A stretch of 64,000 nt of DNA from the NCBI GenBank assembly GCA_019671135.1, contig JAHRHY010000019.1, forward strand, positions 62,001-126,000, in the 5' to 3' direction. Made by a program: the position numbers and the translations under genes. Numbering within the stretch: the stretch's first letter is position 1; each line of letters begins with the position of its first letter. The notes under the pieces were generated by a model, which saw only the letters and a list, made by a program, of their open reading frames with translations, had not been told where the DNA came from and did no database searches. Origin of the DNA: Linnemannia hyalina (Eukaryota; Mortierellomycota; Mortierellomycetes; Mortierellales; Mortierellaceae). Positions 14,791-24,727 of this stretch are shown here, in pieces.

Positions 14791-16104
14791 TCAGGGCCAC
14801 ATCAACCACTCTCGATCTAGCGAAATCAAGGACGGCTCCTTATTGCGTATAGCGTACGAGAGCTCGCCGATCAATCTGCCAACGTTACTTGAATAGGTGA
14901 GGATCTGATGCTCACATTGGGCGGCAGCGTAAACATCCAGCAGGAAATCTCTCTCGAGCATATCCATAGGAACGCCTCGATCCCTTTCGTCGTACCACGC
15001 TTCGTTCGGCCTAGGGACGTCCAGGTACTGAAATCGGAAGTTCTTGTACTGCTCAGTAGACTTTATGACTTCGCCGTCGTCCGACATGATGTAGATGTTC
15101 GAAACCCCAGTCTCGCTCTTGTACTCCTCAGCCTTGCCCATGTAATCGGGAAACTCCAAAGGCGCTGCCTCCGAAGACTTGTCAGCGTGTCGCACATGAA
15201 CAGACATGCAAGGAGTCCGGATCGGAGAATGCCGTCGAAACTGCTCTCGGAACTGATAATTGGGTCGGGTGGCGTAGTAGACCACCATAGTTCTTAACCA
15301 GAATGGGTCCTTGTCCTCAAATCCAGGCGTTTTCGTCTTGGGGTATGACTGGCCGACCATATCATAGAGGTCAGTGCCAATTGTCTGGAAATTGATGGTC
15401 GACTCGTTCCAGTTGGCGAATAGATGCTCCGGAGGGGTGTTCTTGAATGCTCGCTCCATGTCTGCTTCGGTGCATGATGTCAGAGGTATAAAGTTGCTGA
15501 GAACTTCGGGGGTCATCAGGGTCATGTTGCGGTACAGACCGAAAGAGAGACCCAGAGCTACTGTGTGCCATTTGGATCCAAATCCGTGTTCGTTGGTTGC
15601 TCCGTTGAAGAAGTTGGCACATCGGTGTTGAATAAGATCTAGTTGTGACATAAAGGCGCTACGGCGGGGGTCGTCGAATGTCGTCAATAGCTCGTATCCA
15701 TCGCCTTGCATGATATCAACTATCCATCGAGACCGCCTTTGGACAAACTTGTCGACGGCATCTCCGAGTTCCGACCCTTCTCCTTGAACAATGATCCTAA
15801 AGGTGTATTCGCTGACGTCGCCGATGTGGTCCTTGGTGGTGACGATAGATCCATAAGTTTCGTCTTGGCAGCTGCCAATCGAAGCTGAGAAGTCACCGCA
15901 AATGTCGACTAAGGCAGCCTTGCTTGCTTCTGAATGGACGCAGACTGTGGCACCTCGGAGCAAGGGGCAGACAGGGGGTTTCTCGACAACTTTGAGATTC
16001 GTGTAGCCCTCGATCTTTTTGGTGATTATCAGTCGATAGAGCATGATGTTGTGTACACGGATCATCAACCCCATCCCGCAAGCAAGGGCGATTGCATAGA
16101 ACAA
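14791..16104 (-). CDS. GT23-like alpha-1,6-fucosyltransferase family protein
   Basis: The frame encodes up to 437 residues. A hydrophobic N-terminal segment (FYAIALACGMGLMI) suggests a type II Golgi membrane anchor. The catalytic region has MSVHVRHADKSSEA (the HVRR-T/S-DK-type GDP-fucose motif), then NIYIMSDDGEVIKS and TYSSNVGRLIGELSYA, the three C-terminal motifs of FUT8/NodZ-type GT23 enzymes. The start is unresolved: no ATG precedes the hydrophobic segment in frame, the first ATG is at 16074, and CTCTAG or CCTCAG just upstream could be an acceptor from an unseen first exon. It lies between the CRN relic and the Fanzor locus on the same strand. The product would transfer fucose to glycans. 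Family call moderate, boundary call weak. Confidence 0.7.
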   Translation of the reverse strand: MFYAIALACGMGLMIRVHNIMLYRLIITKKIEGYTNLKVVEKPPVCPLLRGATVCVHSEASKAALVDICGDFSASIGSCQDETYGSIVTTKDHIGDVSEYTFRIIVQGEGSELGDAVDKFVQRRSRWIVDIMQGDGYELLTTFDDPRRSAFMSQLDLIQHRCANFFNGATNEHGFGSKWHTVALGLSFGLYRNMTLMTPEVLSNFIPLTSCTEADMERAFKNTPPEHLFANWNESTINFQTIGTDLYDMVGQSYPKTKTPGFEDKDPFWLRTMVVYYATRPNYQFREQFRRHSPIRTPCMSVHVRHADKSSEAAPLEFPDYMGKAEEYKSETGVSNIYIMSDDGEVIKSTEQYKNFRFQYLDVPRPNEAWYDERDRGVPMDMLERDFLLDVYAAAQCEHQILTYSSNVGRLIGELSYAIRNKEPSLISLDREWLMWP

Positions 16105-16249
16105 CCGTCTGAGGACCTAGAGTGATGGCAAACATCCTTATAATTAGCTCATATTTGAGGGATCATCTATTTCAATTGTGATCATCCAGTCTGGTACAGC
16201 TGCTTCTACCTTTGCATTTGATGGAAATTTCATTTCCAGGCGTCCAAGT

Positions 16250-16349
16250 GATGAGACGCGTGCGAAGAGATGAGACGTGTGCGAAGAGATGGGACGTGTG
16301 CAAAGAGATGAGACGTGTGCAAAGAGATGAGACACGTGTGAAGAGATGA
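16250..16349 (+). repeat. 19-bp minisatellite, about five units
   Basis: GATGAGACGTGTGCGAAGA is repeated at 16250, 16269, 16288, 16307 and 16326 with one to three changes per unit, then decays. It lies 150-250 bp upstream of the fucosyltransferase-like frame. Confidence 0.9.
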
Positions 16350-16412
16350 GATGATGGAAGAAAGAACAAAAAAAAAAAAAGGAAGTAACTCGGTAACCTG
16401 TGAAAAATGCGA

Positions 16413-16490
16413 GCTACAGCAGAACAATAGGCGCATAAATTACGTCACCGAACTGAGTAATCGTTGCCGCAGACCAATGTACTGTACAAG
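16413..16490 (-). promoter_or_regulatory. Shared upstream block, copy 2
   Basis: GCTACAGCAGAACAATAGG, then GCGCATAAATTACGTCACCG and GAGTAATCGTTG match the block at 14662-14745 in the same orientation. It lies about 340-410 bp upstream of the fucosyltransferase-like frame, mirroring its position before the CRN relic. It is also 100-180 bp past the Fanzor stop codon, so it could instead be a transposon end. Confidence 0.6.
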
Positions 16491-16575
16491 TTTTGTACAT
16501 CGACACAAAGCGCTATCTATCCCTTCGACCGTTGCCAGTCACAAGGATAACTTGGTAAGACCTGTTCGGGGTCTT
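16483..16575 (-). ncRNA. Candidate guide-RNA (omega-RNA) region 3' of Fanzor
   Basis: Two hairpins lie just past the Fanzor stop. AAGACC/GGTCTT (16557-16562 with 16570-16575) has a 7-nt loop. TGTACAA/TTGTACA (16483-16489 with 16493-16499) has a perfect 7-bp stem and a 3-nt loop. Known Fanzor guide RNAs come from the region overlapping or following the 3' end of the gene and reach the element's end. Position fits; there is no covariation or transcript evidence. Confidence 0.3.
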
Positions 16576-16589
16576 TACAATTGTGAAGG

Positions 16590-19260
16590 TTAAACGCTGG
16601 GCCGAAGGAGAGAGATTGGTCGAGACTGATCGAAAAGCCATTGCTCAGCGATCAGTGCAATGTTGTGAGCTCCAACCGAGTCCCTGTTGATCCATCGACC
16701 ACAGGCGAGGCAGACACAAGATCTTGAAGTCGGCTTTGCCATCCTGGAGGTCTCTCCTCGGGCAGTGCAAGCTGGGCAAACGGTCGAGGACAGATATTCA
16801 TCAACCAAAACGACAATGTGGCCATGTGCTCGCGCCTACGTTAGATAGAAGATTGACGGTTATTGAATGGTCCCATAGCATAACGTTGACAATTGAGCAA
16901 GTAAATAATTGTTTGTCGCGGCATAATGACGGTACCTTCTTGGCAAAATGACTCTGTAATGTCTCATGCTTGGAAGCCAAGTTTATCCCCGTTCGAAACT
17001 TGCCGTTGCCAATAGCAATAAGACACGGCTCCGGTCCACAAAAGCGCAGGATTGCAGCCACAGCCATATCCAGTTCGGCACGAACGGCTTTCTTCTCCTC
17101 CCAGGCGGCTTTTTTCATGCGTAGTGAGCCTTCAAACTCCCGAAGCAAGGGCTCCGTAGACACTCTGACACGAACAGCATCCTCGAAATCCTCCACGGTT
17201 ACTTGGCCTTTTGGGGGCAAACAACTTTCGATCTCCTGGATGGACTGTACGTCTGTCCTGGCTCCCTTTGGATCGACACCCCTCGCCCAAATTCCTCCAT
17301 CGATACTCTCGCCCGGCACCACTTGAAGCTTCCTGTTTTTGACTCTCTCTCTTTCGGATCGCGCTGCAGTGGTGGGAGAGTATAAAGCTGCTCGACGTAT
17401 CATTAGGTTGGTCACAGGTGGATCCCCAGGGTCTGGTGCTCCATTCCACTCACGTTCGTGCTCGATCAGACATAAAGCCGCCGTCACCAACTCCCCAGGG
17501 TCCCACCCGCGACATTGTGGTATTTTTCCCTGGAATATCCTGGCGATAGCGTCCTCATCAGGCAAGACTTTTTCGATACGCATGACTGGATCCAGGGCTC
17601 CATGTGGCTCGTGTTTGGTGTCGTAGGCGAGGACCTGCAGCTCCAAGCCGTTACTTCGAATCATATTGTTCAAAGCATAGCGTGATTTTGTACTGGGGTT
17701 GGCGGGAAACTCTGGCGGTGATTGCGTACATGGTACTCCTTCATCCCGACAGTTCGCAGCAGCTCGAAGGTAGGCCAGCTTCCTGTTACAGTAGTCCTGC
17801 AATGACCGATAACCAAACCTAGAAGGATCACCTTCCGCAAGTTCTGCCATTCTTGTCGTCCGTTTTGCGTAGGGTGTCCGTCTCAGGTCTGGTCCTCCGT
17901 CGTTGTCGTGGCCAACGGGTCTTCTTCGCCCATAGAAAAGCGTCTCAAGCACTTTTCCATAGTCCGAATCAACACAATCCGACGCCTCCGCGCGACTCAA
18001 AATCGTCTCCACGATCGTCTTGGCTGGATTGTTCCTCGCAGTTCCTCCCCATAGAATTCTCCACACTGCTCGCTCCGGTATCATCACAAACGCACCCCGA
18101 AGCTTCGGCTGAGGACAGAACACAGGTCGCTTCTCTGCAGGTAGCGAGAGTAAGTGGTCCCACCAATCCCCGAGAAAGCCCGCCTTGAACTTGTAGCATC
18201 CGTCGTCGTCGGCCGCATATTCGTCTGATCCCAGGGGCTCAGTCGTTGGAGATTCGTCTAGAGCGTCGTCGTCCTGCTGTCGTTGGGCTTCAGGAGGCAC
18301 GTCTCCGTCAACGAGAGGTATGATGTCTTTGCTCCATCCCAGTTTTACCATCTACACAAAAGCGCGGGTAAGACATTGTTAGAGTACGAAAAATATTTTG
18401 ACATTGCATCAAACATAACTCAAACAAGAAAGAAATAAATACCTTTCCAGTGACAGTAGACGGTAGCTTTCTGAAGTGTGTGTGGAGACATACCATCGTG
18501 GCAAGTCCAAACTCCATCTGCATGTCGCCCAGGGGGATGTCGGTAGTGTTAATGGGCGAAAAGTGGGGAATGATCGTCTTGTATCGGGCATAGACCCTCT
18601 GTGCGAGCTCTCGAGCACGGATGGACTCGGACTTCTTGCACTTTTTCTCCATTCAAGGCCAACGACATTAATCCACGGATGAACATCTGACCGGAAGCCT
18701 TGTTCATCACCAGGTCCAGCAGATCGACATTCGTCACCCCTGAGGCTCCTTGCGGGCTAAACACTGTTGTGACTTCTTCCAGTAAAAACAGCTGTATCAT
18801 CCTGAACACGTGGGGACGAGCTTCATTGATCAGGCTCGTGGCCTTCTCCAGGCGGCTCGCAATGGTGTCGACTTGGTCATCAGAGATCCCGAGGGGTCGA
18901 AGGCTACGGCGCAGGCATCCTTTCAAGGAACCAACTGTCTGAGTTATCGTCGGAAAAGCAAACTTGAAAGCGTCCATAAGTTTTGGTGCTGTTGGGGTTG
19001 CATCGATGTCGCGTGGTCTCGCGAGTTTTTTCTTGGATGACGCCTTCCGTCTTTTGTTCTTCGACGAGCGGTCTGTCGACGATGACGAGGATGCTGAAGG
19101 CGAATCTTCAACAGCCTTGGGCTGCTTGTCGACGGGTCGCTTTTTTGGTTGTGACGGGGACATTGTCGACAGTTGATTATCAGAAACAGGGGTGGCTGTC
19201 GACGGATCACTGACTCTGTGGGGAGAGTACCGAACCTGATTGTCAGTGCGAGACTTGAAC
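16590..19260 (-). pseudogene. Fanzor (eukaryotic TnpB-like) nuclease part, with one frameshift
   Basis: Exons 18443-19260, 16936-18351 and 16590-16835 are joined by GT-AG introns of 91 and 100 nt. An N-terminal Ser/Lys-rich basic region precedes helical domains. The RuvC-like core shows CRGWDPGELVTA (first Asp). The second RuvC segment reads IAIGNGKF with Asn where TnpB has Glu, and LVDEYLSSTVCPAC brings a Glu just before the zinc ribbon, as in Fanzors with a rearranged glutamate. The ribbon is CPAC...CLAC, and NRDSVGAHNIA gives the last Asp. In the first exon the phase is off by one: near 18645-18652 (GGAGAAAAAGTGC) the upstream frame runs out while the frame one base away continues cleanly to the next exon, so one extra base is present. 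That is either a true lesion or a consensus error. If independent, the start could be the ATG at 19163; splice phase instead links it to the XPG part. Confidence 0.8.
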
Positions 19261-19352
19261 CTAATTAACCACAAAAAATAATAATTAGAGAGACTTAGAA
19301 ACATTTCCATAACTTGTGCAAACCCGGAGACGTCAATGTGATATTGTCTTAC
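19261..19352 (-). other. 92-nt intron joining the XPG part to the Fanzor part
   Basis: The donor is CCAG|GTAAGA and the acceptor is GGTTAATTAG|GTTCAAG. Exon phases (two bases left over, one base to complete) restore AGG and keep both sides in frame. Without splicing the XPG frame would end three bases after the donor G. This is the basis for calling one gene rather than two. Confidence 0.65.
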
Positions 19353-20975
19353 CTGGATTTCCTCCATTTTTTACGTTTCCTGTTCCTTTTCGCTGCCTCC
19401 CGGCGAGCTCGCTGCGTTTTCGCTGTCCTGGTCCGATTTACATTCGTTTTGGGAGCCGGCTTCTTGTCCTCCATCGGTGGTGTGGATCCCATTGCCGCAC
19501 GTGCCTGAGCCTCTGCAACCTTCTGGTACTCAAGATCGAGCAGTGCCCTCATGACAATCTCGTGCGCATTACAGTCTCGCTGCCCTCCCTGCTCAATCGA
19601 TGTGTGCTGTTGACTGGTAAAAGGCTGAGGGTGTGGGTTCTGATCAACGGAGGATACGGCATCTTCCTGGACGCCCACAAAGGCAGATAAAGCATGCTCG
19701 AAGTCGTCAACCGTAACCGATAGCTGCGAGTCGATTCGTTTTCGTTTCTTCCGAGGGACTCTCTCGGAAAGAAGCTGGTGTCGCACTCGAACGAGAAACT
19801 CGTGGACGTACCAATGAAACGATTCGACGTCAGAGCCGGGTAGCTCCATTTCCCGAATAATCTCGCAGATCTTCTTGATCCCGAAATATGGCACTCCCCG
19901 GGTGTAGTCGTTGCCCGTCACAACAGCCGCGAGTAGTAAATGCCGCTCCGAAGGCAAATCGAGGACCTCCAAAATCGCATCCTTTTCGAAAAGAGTGAGC
20001 TCTCTTGACTTGCCGATCGGATACAACACTCTCGGCACAGCCCCGAAACAAATCAAGTCCGAATCACCGGAGACAACAATGATGTCCTGGGGATTCAGAG
20101 ACTGGGCACAAAGCTTAGCAATGCAAGTATCCGACTGAAAGCGGCAGAGGCATACATGGCAGTCGTACTTTTTGATCAACTCCGCTATAACTTCTCCTTG
20201 AATTACGGTTGTTGGCTTGTAGAGATTCCTGCACCGTTTGTAAGCAGCCTTTCGACGAGATCCACCCACTACACGTGCTTGTTCGATTGCTTGGTGAAGT
20301 GCGTCGGTGCCCTTACGCAGCTTGTCGTCGCGAGCTCGGTGCTCCGCCTGTTTCTGAATGGATGGCTCTCCATCGAAGTGAAGGGTGACAGATTCGTCTT
20401 CGGGAGTACAGAACTGAGAAAGCTTCCTGTACAGTTCATCTGCAATGTGACCGAAGAACTATTTCAAGCAAACGACGACATAGCAAATGATAATTAACTA
20501 ATCAAGTAAATAATCACCAGTGGACCCATGCTAAATCCCGCATTCAGTCCTCAAGAAGATTCATTACCATAACTCTCTGTTGGTCCGTGCCATCCTGTAA
20601 CATCCCATCTTTGTCAACGACGACAGAGTCGGGGCTGTTGGGTCCACTCGTCACCATAGCAAGCTTATCTTTGAGACCAAAGAGCATGTTCGCACGTCTC
20701 AGAAGGTCCGCCTGGGCATCGTTCGGGTCTGGAGAGGCAGAGTCTGTCGACTCGGGTCGCTCTGGCGCATCCTCCATCTGTGGCATGTGCAGGTTGGCGG
20801 GCTCGGTGTTGCGCGTCAGCGTGGTCGTGTACTTTTGTACGACAGAGTAGGCTCGCGCCTTCATCAACCCGTAGTAGGTACCGTTCATGTCGACGTGAAA
20901 TTCCTTGCCGTTCATTTTCGTCGGCGCAATGCCCGTCGCGTTCTTTATCTCTCCTGGGAGTCCGTTGACGCCCAT
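19353..20975 (-). CDS. XPG/FEN1-type nuclease part of the XPG-Fanzor locus
   Basis: Exons 20568-20975 and 19353-20458 are joined by a 109-nt intron (GTAATG...AAATAG). The start MGVNGLPGEI is the Rad2/XPG family N-terminus. HVDMNGTYYGLM carries the first metal-binding Asp, and LHFDGEPSIQKQAEHRAR matches the F-D-G-x-P-x-x-K-x-x segment. VVSGDSDLICFG is the XPG-I acidic motif, and GNDYTRGVPYFGIKK is the helix-two-turn-helix that grips DNA. The usual EAEA pair is missing; the equivalent region has FQSDTCIAKL, so catalysis may be altered. The C-terminal 100 residues are basic and disordered. Such enzymes cut 5' flaps or bubble DNA. It is predicted to be spliced directly to the Fanzor exons downstream, giving a protein of about 1330 residues if the frameshift is discounted. 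Confidence 0.75.
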
Positions 20976-21106
20976 GACTGACTGTAAAGGAAAGAATGAA
21001 GAAAAGCTCATCAGAAGATGGAAACAAACACCACATTGGGCGGACAATGTCGGCGGATTTGAAACGTGATAATACCTTAATGAAGCAGGGGCGTGAGCCG
21101 TGCGGA

Positions 21107-21151
<45 letters not shown>

Positions 21152-21780
21152 AGGGGTGGGGTGGAGGTCGCAGTGATTGGATGTCAGAAGTTGGTCGAAT
21201 GAGTCTAATTGGTTTTTTTGTTTGTTGACAATGACGTCAGTACATTCCTTTTGGTTTAAAGGGTGGGAAGTTGGCTGCCAATCACAAAAAGTCAGCTTAC
21301 TGTGGCAAGGTTTCTGGCGCGTGAGCAGTTGATCTGTTGACAGAATGAGGTAAAGTCGGCCATGGGGTTAGCGAGGTCCTGGTATTGATTGGTCATCCAA
21401 GCTGACGCCAATAGACGGAGAGCGATGCACTTACAGAAGACTAGGTGTAGCTCTGGTTTGGATCTCTGTCCTGATCAACGATGTCCACTTAGGATTCCAT
21501 GAGCGAACTTGGCAAAGGTGTTGGAGTGGGAAAAGGCAGCCCAAGGACATTTTATTTGCTCCCCAGCGACGCGACGCGACAGGCGGTCTTTTTTTTTTTG
21601 GCGTGACCCTGTGCCCCTTGACCGTTCACACATTCAAAAAATTCGTGCTAGTCACATGCACCGCCATATGTTAACAATCCGAAAAGGCATTAGGGGCCTT
21701 TATTTTTTGTTCTTCATATCTGTTATTATCTTGCATTAGTATCAGAGGGGTGCTTCTCATTACTGGTTAAGCAACTACAA
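20976..21780. other. Upstream region of the XPG-Fanzor locus
   Basis: No gene. It contains a TG microsatellite (21114-21150) and several CCAAT/ATTGG sequences between 21270 and 21410, compatible with a promoter. I looked for inverted terminal repeats matching the DNA past 16590 and saw none that I trust. Confidence 0.5.
21114..21150. repeat. (TG)n microsatellite
   Basis: About 18 uninterrupted TG units, just upstream of the XPG-Fanzor start. Confidence 0.95.
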
Positions 21781-23732
21781 CTACGATTTATGGAATTCTC
21801 TGAAGCAATTGCGGGCCTTTGACATACACAAGGCAACATTGCAGATCTCACAGGCTATGACTGTTTGAGTTTTTCTATCGTGGTTTTTGTCGTCGAAGAC
21901 AGTGGCTCTGAAGCGACAGAACAAGCAGTTGGATTTTTGGTCGAGAATTATGGGTGAGTGGGGTCCTGGGGTGAAACGGATGGTGGGCAGATCAGAGCAA
22001 TTTTTGGTAACATATATCTTCTTGGTTGGTTCTGGTTTGGTGGCTCTGTGAACTCGTGTCCGTTTGCTGTAGTCCATGTGCTGTTTGCTTTCTGCTCCCT
22101 TCCTGATCAAATCCCATGCCAACCTGAGACAGAAAGTTTTGTGAGAAAGGGATCCTTTTTGGACGACATAGATTCGATAGGCGTTGATGATGGTGGTGTC
22201 GAGAATCCAAAAAAGAGAGGCATCCACGTCCTGAACACGGCTAATTGGGTGCTGTAATATGCCCTGAACTGGTTACTGACATCGACGCCATTCATGTTGT
22301 GGTTGTAGTCATCAATCAACTTGGGGATTTTGAGTGCCGCTCTGGGCTTGCCATTGAATATTGCCCGAGCATTGGCTGCGTTAGTGCTAGTGTTGCGAGG
22401 GCAGCGTCGAATACGCTCAATGAAGTCATCATCCGTGTTGATTTTGTGGATGGTACTCAGCATGGTGACGGGTGCATTATCCATCCAAACGACGGCAAGA
22501 ACTTGTTTGTCGATAACAACTCCTGTCAGGGTATTCCATTGTAGTTTCTCACTCTTACCCACTTTCAAAGTGTCAGGGAAGCAGGCTGAGTTGATGCGGG
22601 TGGTGCCACATGCGCCGATGTTGAGTCCACGTAGGTGCTTGAAAAGCGGGATGTTGGAAAATAGTTGTCCATGTAGATGTTGAATGGACGAGTCTTGTAG
22701 GGGAGTGATTTGGCGAGACGAACAACAGCGGAAGAGGTTGGAGTAAGCCCGTTTATCCTGTCTATGCCAATGATGGATTTGATGCGAGGGGTGTAGAGGA
22801 AGGAATAGGTGTATCCTGATTGACAAAGAGCGAGAATCTTGTAGCCTTCCGGGGGTAGGCTTACCCTTCATGCGTACGGTGTGAGCACTCCTTCCTGAAA
22901 AGCGAACAATCATCTCGTCGATGGACACATTGGTGGAGAGAACGTAGTAACGAGCGAAGTCGGTAGCGAGTTTGGTCGAAAGAGGTTCTACTTTTGAGAA
23001 CCAATGTTGCTCAGGCTCGTTGGGGTTGGAGACACGAAAAAAACGCTTCGGTTGTTCGAAGCGGACGAGGGACATGAAGTTAGTGATGTTGTGTTGAGGA
23101 CATTCAGGGAAGGTTGACCAATACTCAGAGACAGAGTTCTGCCTGAACACGCCCATGTAGACAATGATGCCGAGGAATGTGCGCAGTTCGTCAGGTGTGG
23201 TCTTTACCCATTGGCGCGATCCCTCTCCTGTGCCGGCTCCTTTTGATGCTGCATATGCGTTAGTGTTGTCTGCCAAATCCGTCAATACCGGGTCGGAGAA
23301 GAAGAGTGTGAAAATTGTCAATGGTGATAGTTCGCTGTCGAGTTGAAGTGCAAGGGGAAGGTTGGTTTGTGCTGAGCATACTGTTTTTTGGTGTTTGAAG
23401 ACGTCCTTGAAGTCAGGGACGGCTGGGAGTTCTGTGGGTTCGCGGGTGACTTTCTTGACAGCCCTCTTCGCTTTCTTGACAGCCCTCTTCGCTTTCTTGA
23501 CAGCCCTCTTCGCTTTCGCGAGAGCTAAGGGTGCAGGGGACACCTCCTCTCCCGCCGGTTGCTCTCTTTCTGGTGGTCGCTCTTCATCATCGGAATCATC
23601 CTCACCGGCAATCTCTCGAGTTCGGCAAATGACCGAAAACGACAACTCCTCTGTCTCCTCGGAAGTGAGTGTGCTAGTACCTTGACCGTTAGAAACGTCA
23701 AAGGAACGTAGGAACTCGAAGCATGGGTCCAT
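21781..23732 (-). pseudogene. piggyBac-type transposase with three frame breaks
   Basis: The start at 23732 (MDPCFEFLRSF) lies upstream of a piggyBac DDD transposase. The N-terminus is acidic, with three perfect KAKRAVK repeats. The catalytic core has STNVSIDEMIVRFSGRS (first Asp), a second Asp in the MDNYF region and MNGVDVSNQFRAYY (third Asp). A C-terminal Cys-rich zinc finger follows (CLFC...CEIC...C...CFREFH). The frame is lost by one extra base near 22850 (CCCCCGGAAGG), regained near 22670 by loss of a T, and lost again near 22205 where a T run is one short. The last part continues in another frame to the stop at 21781. TTAA targets and terminal repeats were not convincingly identified. 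Probably a dead copy, unless the indels are consensus errors. Confidence 0.85.
23451..23516 (-). repeat. 21-bp coding tandem repeat, three units
   Basis: TTTCTTGACAGCCCTCTTCGC is repeated three times and encodes the seven-residue KAKRAVK repeat in the piggyBac N-terminus. Confidence 0.92.
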
Positions 23733-23897
23733 GAGCAGGTTGGGCGAAGTTTTCTTTGTGAGGGAGACAGTAACGGAGGCTTTGGAGATGATGAGAGAGA
23801 AAAAAAAGGTTGAATTTGACAGCGAAGGTGGTAATGAGGCGAGCTGGGAAACGACAACCCTCGTTGTTTTCATTAGACGACACGAGACCCTTCCCAA

Positions 23898-24727
23898 CCC
23901 GTTTTATTGGAAACCCTGATAAATTGAAAAAGAAAAATTGGAACCAATTTCGATTCTAAAACGGTTGAAGGGATACGCACTCTCTTCTTAAAACTCCCTC
24001 AACTACCACCTACCTACCCTCCACCATGCTGCCCAATAGAGGACCCCAAATCCGCCGCTCGTACGCTGCTGCTGTCGCCGAAGGGCCACTTCGTACCGAA
24101 ACGAAGTCAAACTGGAAAGATGGTCGCTACTGATGAACCAAAAGGACGAGGACGGCGCCGAGGTCCAGCAGCTGCTGAAGCCACCACTCTCGCGACCAAA
24201 TCCTCCACAGCAACAATCAGCCTACTACCAACACCCTTTATGTCGAAGCTACAGCTCAGAATGCCCCTGTCCCTGCGATCGCCACCAGAACTCGAACAAT
24301 GTCCGACAATACCACCCCTTCCACCAAAGCGCCCACCACGACCAAGGCCCCCAAAGCTCCAAAGGCCAGTTCCACGATAAAAGGGTCAGAAGAAAGTGCT
24401 TCATAACACTGGTCAAAAGCGACGAATAAGAAAAGGTCAAAAGCGACGAGCAAGAAGTCAGTGGAATCCGCAGACACAGATGACTCGGACCCTGACACTG
24501 TCAAGTAGGTTTCTCTTTTTTGACGACCACGTTGGTCATCTGTGGCAGTAGCCAGACGTGAAGATGACATTGATGGGGGCCATCGGACTGCGAATATCTA
24601 ATCATACCCTAGACCGAGTCGGCCTGCAGACAACCTTGGCGCCCGCCGAGAACTTGAGACATAAGGGGGTCTGTAGAGTAATATGACCATCGTCAGCTCT
24701 GAATGAGGAGTGGTGGAAAACCTTCAT
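23898..24727. other. No confirmed gene; low-complexity coding-like fragments
   Basis: A plus-strand ATG at 24026 opens a short frame (MLPNRGPQIRR) that stops after about 35 codons. Thr/Lys/Ala/Pro-rich fragments follow in changing frames to about 24507, ending with an acidic DTDDSDPDTVK-like tail. This may be a decayed transposon ORF. I cannot assign it. Confidence 0.35.

What the first reader, a model, noticed from the sequence alone, without database searches (positions are those of the whole stretch)
16590..20975. XPG/FEN1-type nuclease spliced in frame to a Fanzor RNA-guided nuclease
Seen: an XPG N- and I-region gene ends at CCAG|GTAAGA, and 92 nt later TTAATTAG|GTTCAAG opens the Fanzor N-terminal frame in exactly the completing phase. 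All five exons then chain with consistent phases, apart from one extra base. Known: Fanzors are TnpB descendants carried by transposons and guided by omega-RNA; XPG/FEN1 enzymes trim flaps. Inference: one polypeptide of about 1330 residues combining an RNA-guided cutter and a flap nuclease, which could process the break it makes, or a two-gene cassette moving together. I know of no described XPG-Fanzor fusion.
Basis: partly seen in the sequence, partly recalled or inferred. Interest (0 to 1): 0.88.

Follow-up and report, generated by a model that had tools for sequence, protein, structure and literature searches.

The report
EXO1/XPG nuclease fused to Fanzor
A mobile DNA element in the soil fungus that is most likely Linnemannia hyalina carries a gene predicted to make one protein that joins an EXO1-type DNA-end nuclease to a Fanzor RNA-guided DNA cutter, which would let the same protein cut a chosen site and process the break.

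Summary
On the minus strand, 20975..16590, five exons chain in phase from an EXO1/FEN1/XPG-type 5' nuclease into a Fanzor1-type nuclease. The "one extra base" is the net effect of an 11-bp deletion in this copy; two sister copies read through as 1334 residues. The halves occur together at 64 of 80 XPG-half loci in this genome. In six of eight clade I lineages scanned, the joining intron sits at the same codon in phase 2 (the other two are broken there); five of six clade II loci offer a phase-2 junction. Residues after the acceptor are conserved although the candidate separate start codon is not. Of 59 retrieved proteins, 33 match both halves, from eight Mortierellaceae genera. AlphaFold models of relatives match EXO1 and solved Fanzor1s. 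The gene lies in a 7.46-kb element with a piggyBac-type transposase; the Fanzor stop lies 72 nt from the element's 3' end, which could fold as a guide-RNA scaffold ending in site-specific flank. Most likely it is a cut-and-resect enzyme that favours repair from the element-bearing chromosome. The fusion is strongly supported but lacks RNA evidence; the mechanism is inferred. Searches of the held paper library found no description.

The parts
16518..23975 (-). Whole mobile element (7458 bp with the terminal TA at both ends); 5' end at 23975, 3' end at 16518
   Evidence: nine other family-A copies stop matching within 3 bases of 16518 and all ten right ends read TATCCC there; full-length copies stop at 23975/23976; ends read TATCCCTTC[G/A]ACCGTT
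22107..23903 (-). piggyBac-type transposase ORF (598 aa stop to stop), DDE_Tnp_1_7
   Evidence: Pfam PF13843, E 1.1e-40
20568..20975 (-). Exon 1: start codon and N-terminal XPG region
19353..20458 (-). Exon 2: EXO1/XPG-type nuclease core and basic C-terminal tail
   Evidence: Rad2 E 2.1e-4; EXO1 E 1e-6, probability 1.00, on relative P0002
19261..19352 (-). Junction intron, phase 2; if retained, its donor gives a stop right after the nuclease half
   Evidence: the same codon and phase in 6 of 8 clade I lineages scanned
18443..19260 (-). Exon 3: junction motif FKSRTD..RY and Fanzor N-terminal region
18648..18650 (-). Place of an 11-bp deletion in this copy; frame lost, stop after residue 741
16936..18351 (-). 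Exon 4: Fanzor WED/RuvC region with WDPGE (RuvC-I)
16590..16835 (-). Exon 5: alternative RuvC-II glutamate, zinc ribbon, RuvC-III aspartate, stop
   Evidence: PF07282 E 5.3e-10; fits the published pattern E-x6-CxxC-x(12,18)-CxxC-x(4,8)-D
16518..16597 (-). Candidate omegaRNA scaffold end: hairpin plus terminal stem closed by UAUCC..GGAUA at the element edge
   Evidence: predicted in families A-E; no RNA data
16494..16517 (-). Flank that would be copied as the guide (differs between insertion sites)
   Evidence: inference from Fanzor omegaRNAs

Best explanation
The locus is a mobile element with a piggyBac-type transposase whose cargo gene is predicted to be spliced into one protein, an EXO1/XPG-type 5' nuclease followed by a Fanzor1 RNA-guided nuclease. 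The copy in the window is broken by an 11-bp deletion; two sister copies are open over all 1334 codons. Likely mechanism (inferred): the gene's 3' end is read into the chromosome next to the element, giving an omegaRNA whose guide is that flank; the Fanzor half then cuts the same site where the element is missing (after excision, or on a sister or homologous chromosome); the tethered EXO1-type half trims the 5' ends so that repair is steered to homologous recombination with the element-bearing copy, restoring or copying the element.
For: Fusion: 1334-aa open five-exon frame in two sister copies; in 17 distinct loci the only GT-AG pair that rebuilds the junction motif is the same codon, phase 2, 90-106 nt, and in family D the GTAAGT donor gives the same codon and phase, 107 nt; phase-2 junctions are also available in five of six clade II loci, two of them used in NCBI models P0037 and P0015; residues F-[KR]-[SR]-R-x-D..RY after the acceptor are conserved while the Met of the candidate separate start is Leu in families B, D and E; 33 of 59 proteins match both halves. 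Nature of the halves: EXO1/FEN1/Rad2/XPG; SpuFz, PpFz and GtFz are the first 7 of 209 fold matches; DPG plus E-alt zinc ribbon. Element: ends and transposase. Guide: Fanzor stop 72 nt from the element's 3' end, terminal stem built from the terminal repeat in the five families folded, flanks different per site, as described for Fanzor1 reRNAs (passages).
Against: No RNA, protein or activity data. The window copy is broken, and other copies carry deletions or a stop. 16 of 80 XPG-half loci and 60 of 124 zinc-ribbon loci have no partner in range; six of those 60 were fetched and show Fanzor parts without an XPG match, L069 most of the Fanzor half in pieces. Two of eight clade I lineages (L030, L034) and one of six clade II loci (L059) give no good junction. 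Within-family substitutions are mixed: XPG 5 synonymous/0 non-synonymous (L024-L021) but 2/8 in family C and 6/13 in family B. In the clade of the window one metal-ligand Glu of the nuclease half is Gln. Fold z-scores of the 3' ends are weak in 2 of 5 families (-1.03, -1.13). The resection step is inference alone.
Confidence: 0.62

Rival explanations
1. Two neighbouring genes of one transposon: an XPG-type nuclease and a Fanzor with its own start codon at 19163, made from separate transcripts or by retention of the junction intron.
For: An in-frame ATG (MSPSQPKK..) follows the acceptor at 19163; if the intron is kept, the donor itself gives a stop codon right after the nuclease half here and in 5 of the 6 clade I families with the junction, so a nuclease-only form is possible.
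Against: The 32 residues between acceptor and that ATG hold the conserved motif, and the Met is not conserved (Leu in families B, D and E); intron codon and phase are conserved; gene models from several species run through the junction.
Confidence: 0.1
2. The fusion is real but the EXO1/XPG half no longer cuts; it binds or bends DNA or holds a partner for the Fanzor half.
For: In clade I (window) the first of the two I-region Glu of Rad2 aligns with Gln, in 7 of 7 rows that cover it. A predicted fold does not show activity.
Against: The other acidic positions are kept in the clade I rows that cover them, and the six clade II loci keep EAD; single models deviate (for example P0019, P0023, P0041).
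Confidence: 0.2
3. Relics: a chance fusion inherited by dying elements, without function today.
For: Many unpaired or truncated pieces; the window copy and others carry deletions or stops; mixed substitution ratios.
Against: Near-identical copies at different sites, two of them shown open, and the same architecture in two clades about 25% identical and in gene models of eight genera.
Confidence: 0.08

Closest known systems
Fanzor1 (SpuFz1, GtFz1, PpFz1)
   Same: RuvC/TNB fold (first 7 PDB matches), DPG motif and alternative Glu six residues before the first CxxC, gene end close to a transposon end, predicted guide in the flank
   Different: The majority of Fz1s are 600-700 aa (passage); here the Fanzor part is about 830 aa and is preceded by a 500-aa EXO1/XPG-type nuclease in the same predicted protein
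PpFz1 with the FRI insertion (cyclophilin-binding)
   Same: A Fanzor1 with an extra domain in an early-diverging fungus (passages)
   Different: A small insertion inside RuvC that binds a protein, not an N-terminal second nuclease
EXO1 / FEN1 / XPG (Rad2) family
   Same: Predicted fold and most acidic ligands
   Different: Below Pfam's XPG_I cut-off (13.6 against 24.9); Gln for one ligand in clade I; fused to an RNA-guided nuclease
Transposons with nuclease cargo in Bao and Jurka 2013 (Mariner elements of algal viruses; their citation of DEDDh nuclease in piggyBac)
   Same: A transposon that carries nuclease cargo, some with Fanzor1 (passages)
   Different: Separate proteins and other nuclease families; the text holds no 'exonuclease', no 'XPG' and one 'piggyBac', not tied to a Fanzor
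Engineered editors with added exonucleases (for example PMC10927552, search listing only)
   Same: RNA-guided nuclease combined with an exonuclease to steer repair
   Different: Man-made; here the pairing is predicted in nature

Membership tests
Fanzor | RuvC-I DPG motif | tested here: met
   WDPGE in exon 4 and I/VDPGE in clade I relatives; clade II has DLG, DAG or DGG instead
Fanzor | Alternative Glu and zinc ribbon, E-x6-CxxC-x(12,18)-CxxC-x(4,8)-D | tested here: met
   Exon 5, spacers 18 and 6 (pattern); PF07282 E 5.3e-10
Fanzor | Fanzor1 fold | tested here: met
   SpuFz, PpFz, GtFz first, E 2e-15 to 1.5e-12; a Fanzor2 only at rank 30. The model is of the L. elongata relative P0001, pLDDT 71.1
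Fanzor | OmegaRNA from the gene's 3' end into the flank | tested here: inconclusive
   Structure potential at the 3' end in five families, z-scores -1.0 to -3.1; no RNA data
Fanzor | RNA-guided DNA cleavage | not testable with these tools
   needs purified protein
EXO1/FEN1/XPG 5' nuclease | Fold of the nuclease core | tested here: met
   36 PDB matches at E<=0.001, led by EXO1, with FEN1, Rad2 and XPG; model of P0002 has pLDDT about 72-94 over the core only, mean 58.9
EXO1/FEN1/XPG 5' nuclease | Conserved acidic metal ligands | tested here: inconclusive
   All but one kept in the clade I rows that cover them (Glu to Gln); all kept in the six clade II loci read
EXO1/FEN1/XPG 5' nuclease | Pfam XPG models above the curated cut-off | tested here: not met
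   Window XPG_I 13.6 bits; of the relatives scanned only P0017 and P0021 pass, with XPG_I_2
piggyBac superfamily transposon | DDE_Tnp_1_7 transposase | tested here: met
   E 1.1e-40
piggyBac superfamily transposon | TTAA target duplication (recalled) | tested here: not met
   Only TA is common to both sides at 10 right and 8 left ends, so called piggyBac-type by transposase only

The most novel reading that the evidence does not exclude
A natural cut-resect-copy enzyme: an RNA-guided nuclease with its own built-in EXO1-type end-resection domain, evolved in fungal transposons to force homology-directed copying of the element into its own empty site, with intron retention as a possible switch that releases the resection domain alone.
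Probability: 0.35. Interest if true: 0.93.

Novelty: new variant of a known kind. Interest (0 to 1): 0.86.

Why it matters
How Fanzors help their transposons is open; in the passages seen, the 2023 Nature paper raises cutting of the sister chromosome only as a possibility. A Fanzor fused to a 5' end nuclease points to end processing as part of the job and makes it directly testable: disable one half at a time and see which repair outcome changes. It would also be a natural counterpart of engineered guide-plus-exonuclease editors, in a family where the standard domain cut-off hides the second nuclease.

Tried and rejected
Assembly error or a plain frameshift: rejected, since the shift is an 11-bp deletion of this copy and two sister copies are open. 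My first guess that RuvC-I was 'ARGVDPK' was dropped when the alignment showed WDPGE. Guides matching the family A element itself: of 19 flanks tested, the longest exact match from the first base was 10 bases. Rfam: one hit at 16000-24500, E 0.92, not credible. Building an exact clade II gene model of L063 by script failed, so one search used an approximate join. Selection by within-family substitutions was inconclusive. Fanzors without XPG: 6 of 60 unpaired zinc-ribbon loci were fetched; none shows an XPG match at E 1e-4, four keep only 3' parts, L065 and L069 keep more of the Fanzor half, so XPG-less Fanzors or decayed copies remain possible.

Full report
What is there. On the minus strand the window holds, 5' to 3', an EXO1/XPG-type nuclease (exons 20975-20568 and 20458-19353), a 92-nt intron, and a Fanzor (exons 19260-18443, 18351-16936, 16835-16590). 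Splicing gives one frame except at one place in exon 3, where this copy lacks 11 bp present in the two sister copies read in full. Those copies, at C6:1474670-1479072 and C4:1861023-1865425, read 1334 residues to a stop. The window belongs to a 51.5-Mb genome that I take to be Linnemannia hyalina, from a shared contig length (taxonomy).

The element. Ten DNA copies of the cargo gene were found, the window's included, nine of them nearly full length. The nine others stop matching within 3 bases of window 16518, and all ten right ends read TATCCC there; the other end is at 23975/23976. Both ends read TATCCCTTC[G/A]ACCGTT. Beyond TATCCC only the TA can be a shared target duplication at 10 right and 8 left ends (a ninth left-end locus, L078, showed no such end). 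Two copies on C4 lie in opposite orientation with identical flanks over the 30-40 nt seen, so distinct sites are nine right and seven left. Inside lies a piggyBac-type transposase (PF13843, E 1.1e-40). A related transposase lies upstream on the same strand for 26 of 64 paired loci, and for two more on the opposite strand. Family D has none in range but shares the GGGATA end, so it may be moved in trans (inference).

One gene or two. The XPG half and the zinc ribbon were searched with clade I and clade II queries. After merging, 64 of 80 XPG-half loci have a same-strand zinc ribbon 1.4-4.0 kb downstream; 16 do not, and 60 of 124 zinc ribbons are unpaired. The pairs range from identical down to about 25% identity. 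A scan of 41 loci for GT-AG pairs that rebuild the junction motif found exactly one solution in each of 21 loci (17 distinct places): phase 2, 90-106 nt. The motif came from these families, so this tests uniqueness and phase, not discovery. Of the other 20 loci, 12 are family D (L038-L048, L057), with Thr for Ser in the motif: read on L057, the GTAAGT donor gives the same codon and phase, 107 nt, among six candidate pairs. L030 and L034 have no junction motif; L030 is broken into pieces and L034 lacks the Fanzor start. The six clade II loci were read by hand: L060-L064 offer a phase-2 junction after a basic tail, among several candidates; L059 has no good donor. NCBI's models P0037 (L064 locus) and P0015 (near-identical to L063) use the phase-2 junctions listed there. 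The residues after the acceptor are conserved in clade I, while the Met that could start a separate Fanzor is Leu in families B, D and E. Of 59 proteins retrieved in three searches, 33 match both halves and 26 the Fanzor half only (E<=1e-6, 60 columns or more). Two of the three queries were full fusions and candidate lengths are bounded, which favours fused hits; P0016 keeps only 68 residues of the XPG half. The 33 come from Linnemannia, Mortierella, Entomortierella, Haplosporangium, Dissophora, Podila, Benniella and Actinomortierella, all Mortierellaceae. They are gene models; I saw no RNA evidence.

What the halves are. P0002 (XPG half; mean pLDDT 58.9, core about 72-94) matches human EXO1 first, then FEN1, Rad2 and XPG. 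P0001 (Fanzor half, pLDDT 71.1) matches SpuFz, PpFz and GtFz as its first seven hits. Fanzor motifs are met. In the XPG half the acidic residues are kept in the clade I rows that cover them, except one Glu of Rad2 that is Gln in 7 of 7 rows; the six clade II loci read keep EAD, while single gene models deviate. The Pfam XPG_I score of the window is below its cut-off, which may be why the pairing has not been noticed (inference).

How it likely works. Fanzors cut DNA matching their guide, SpuFz1 leaving 5' overhangs (PMC10432273, passages). An EXO1-type partner in the same protein would trim those 5' ends, leaving 3' tails for recombination with the chromosome that still has the element. This step is inferred. 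I give the fusion about 0.93 and the mechanism about 0.45 on their own; the stated 0.62 is for the whole statement read with the mechanism as the likeliest one.

Literature. Searches of the held library: Fanzor+XPG 0 papers, Fanzor+Mortierella 0, TnpB+Linnemannia 0, Fanzor+piggyBac 11 (listings, only PMC3627910 looked into), Fanzor+exonuclease+homologous recombination+transposon 9 (listings), and (listings). Passages were seen in PMC3627910, PMC10432273, PMC10711439 and PMC11423790; none was read whole. Most subscription papers, most preprints and all supplements were not seen.

Noticed in passing
16422-16468 (minus strand): Just outside the element lies a 47-bp stretch 86-98% identical to 14 other places in the genome, several of them at the end of clade II Fanzor genes; no clade II zinc ribbon was found beside it: possibly a gene-less guide-RNA relic.
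   Followed up: partly
L025 (window copy), L022, L027, exon 3: Three of nine family-A copies carry different 8-11-bp deletions, all within about 190 bp of exon 3, while exons 2 and 3 otherwise show a single 1-bp gap; the clustering is unexplained.
   Followed up: partly
19352 and matching donors in the other families: Because the intron is in phase 2 and most donors read GTAA or GTGA, keeping the intron ends the protein right after the nuclease half in 5 of the 6 clade I families that have the junction (not in E).
   Followed up: no
L059-L064: Clade II Fanzors have DLG, DAG or DGG in place of the Fanzor-typical DPG, while keeping the alternative glutamate.
   Followed up: no
16520-23973: The transposase is piggyBac-type by Pfam but the ends share only TA, not the TTAA expected (from memory) for piggyBac.
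   Followed up: partly
L058 family (E), protein P0011: Twelve loci of this family have transposase matches upstream; NCBI's model P0011 joins a piece of transposase (positions 1-109 of 349 of the Pfam model), the XPG half and the Fanzor half in one 1479-aa protein.
   Followed up: no
L034 (C48:1493509-1497045): A 576-aa open frame runs from the XPG half straight into a late Fanzor segment (WGIDPGE) without the junction intron, as if the Fanzor N-terminal part had been deleted.
   Followed up: no
14791-16116 (minus): Neighbouring ORF resembles alpha-1,6-fucosyltransferase (FUT8_N_cat, E 1.1e-9).
   Followed up: no
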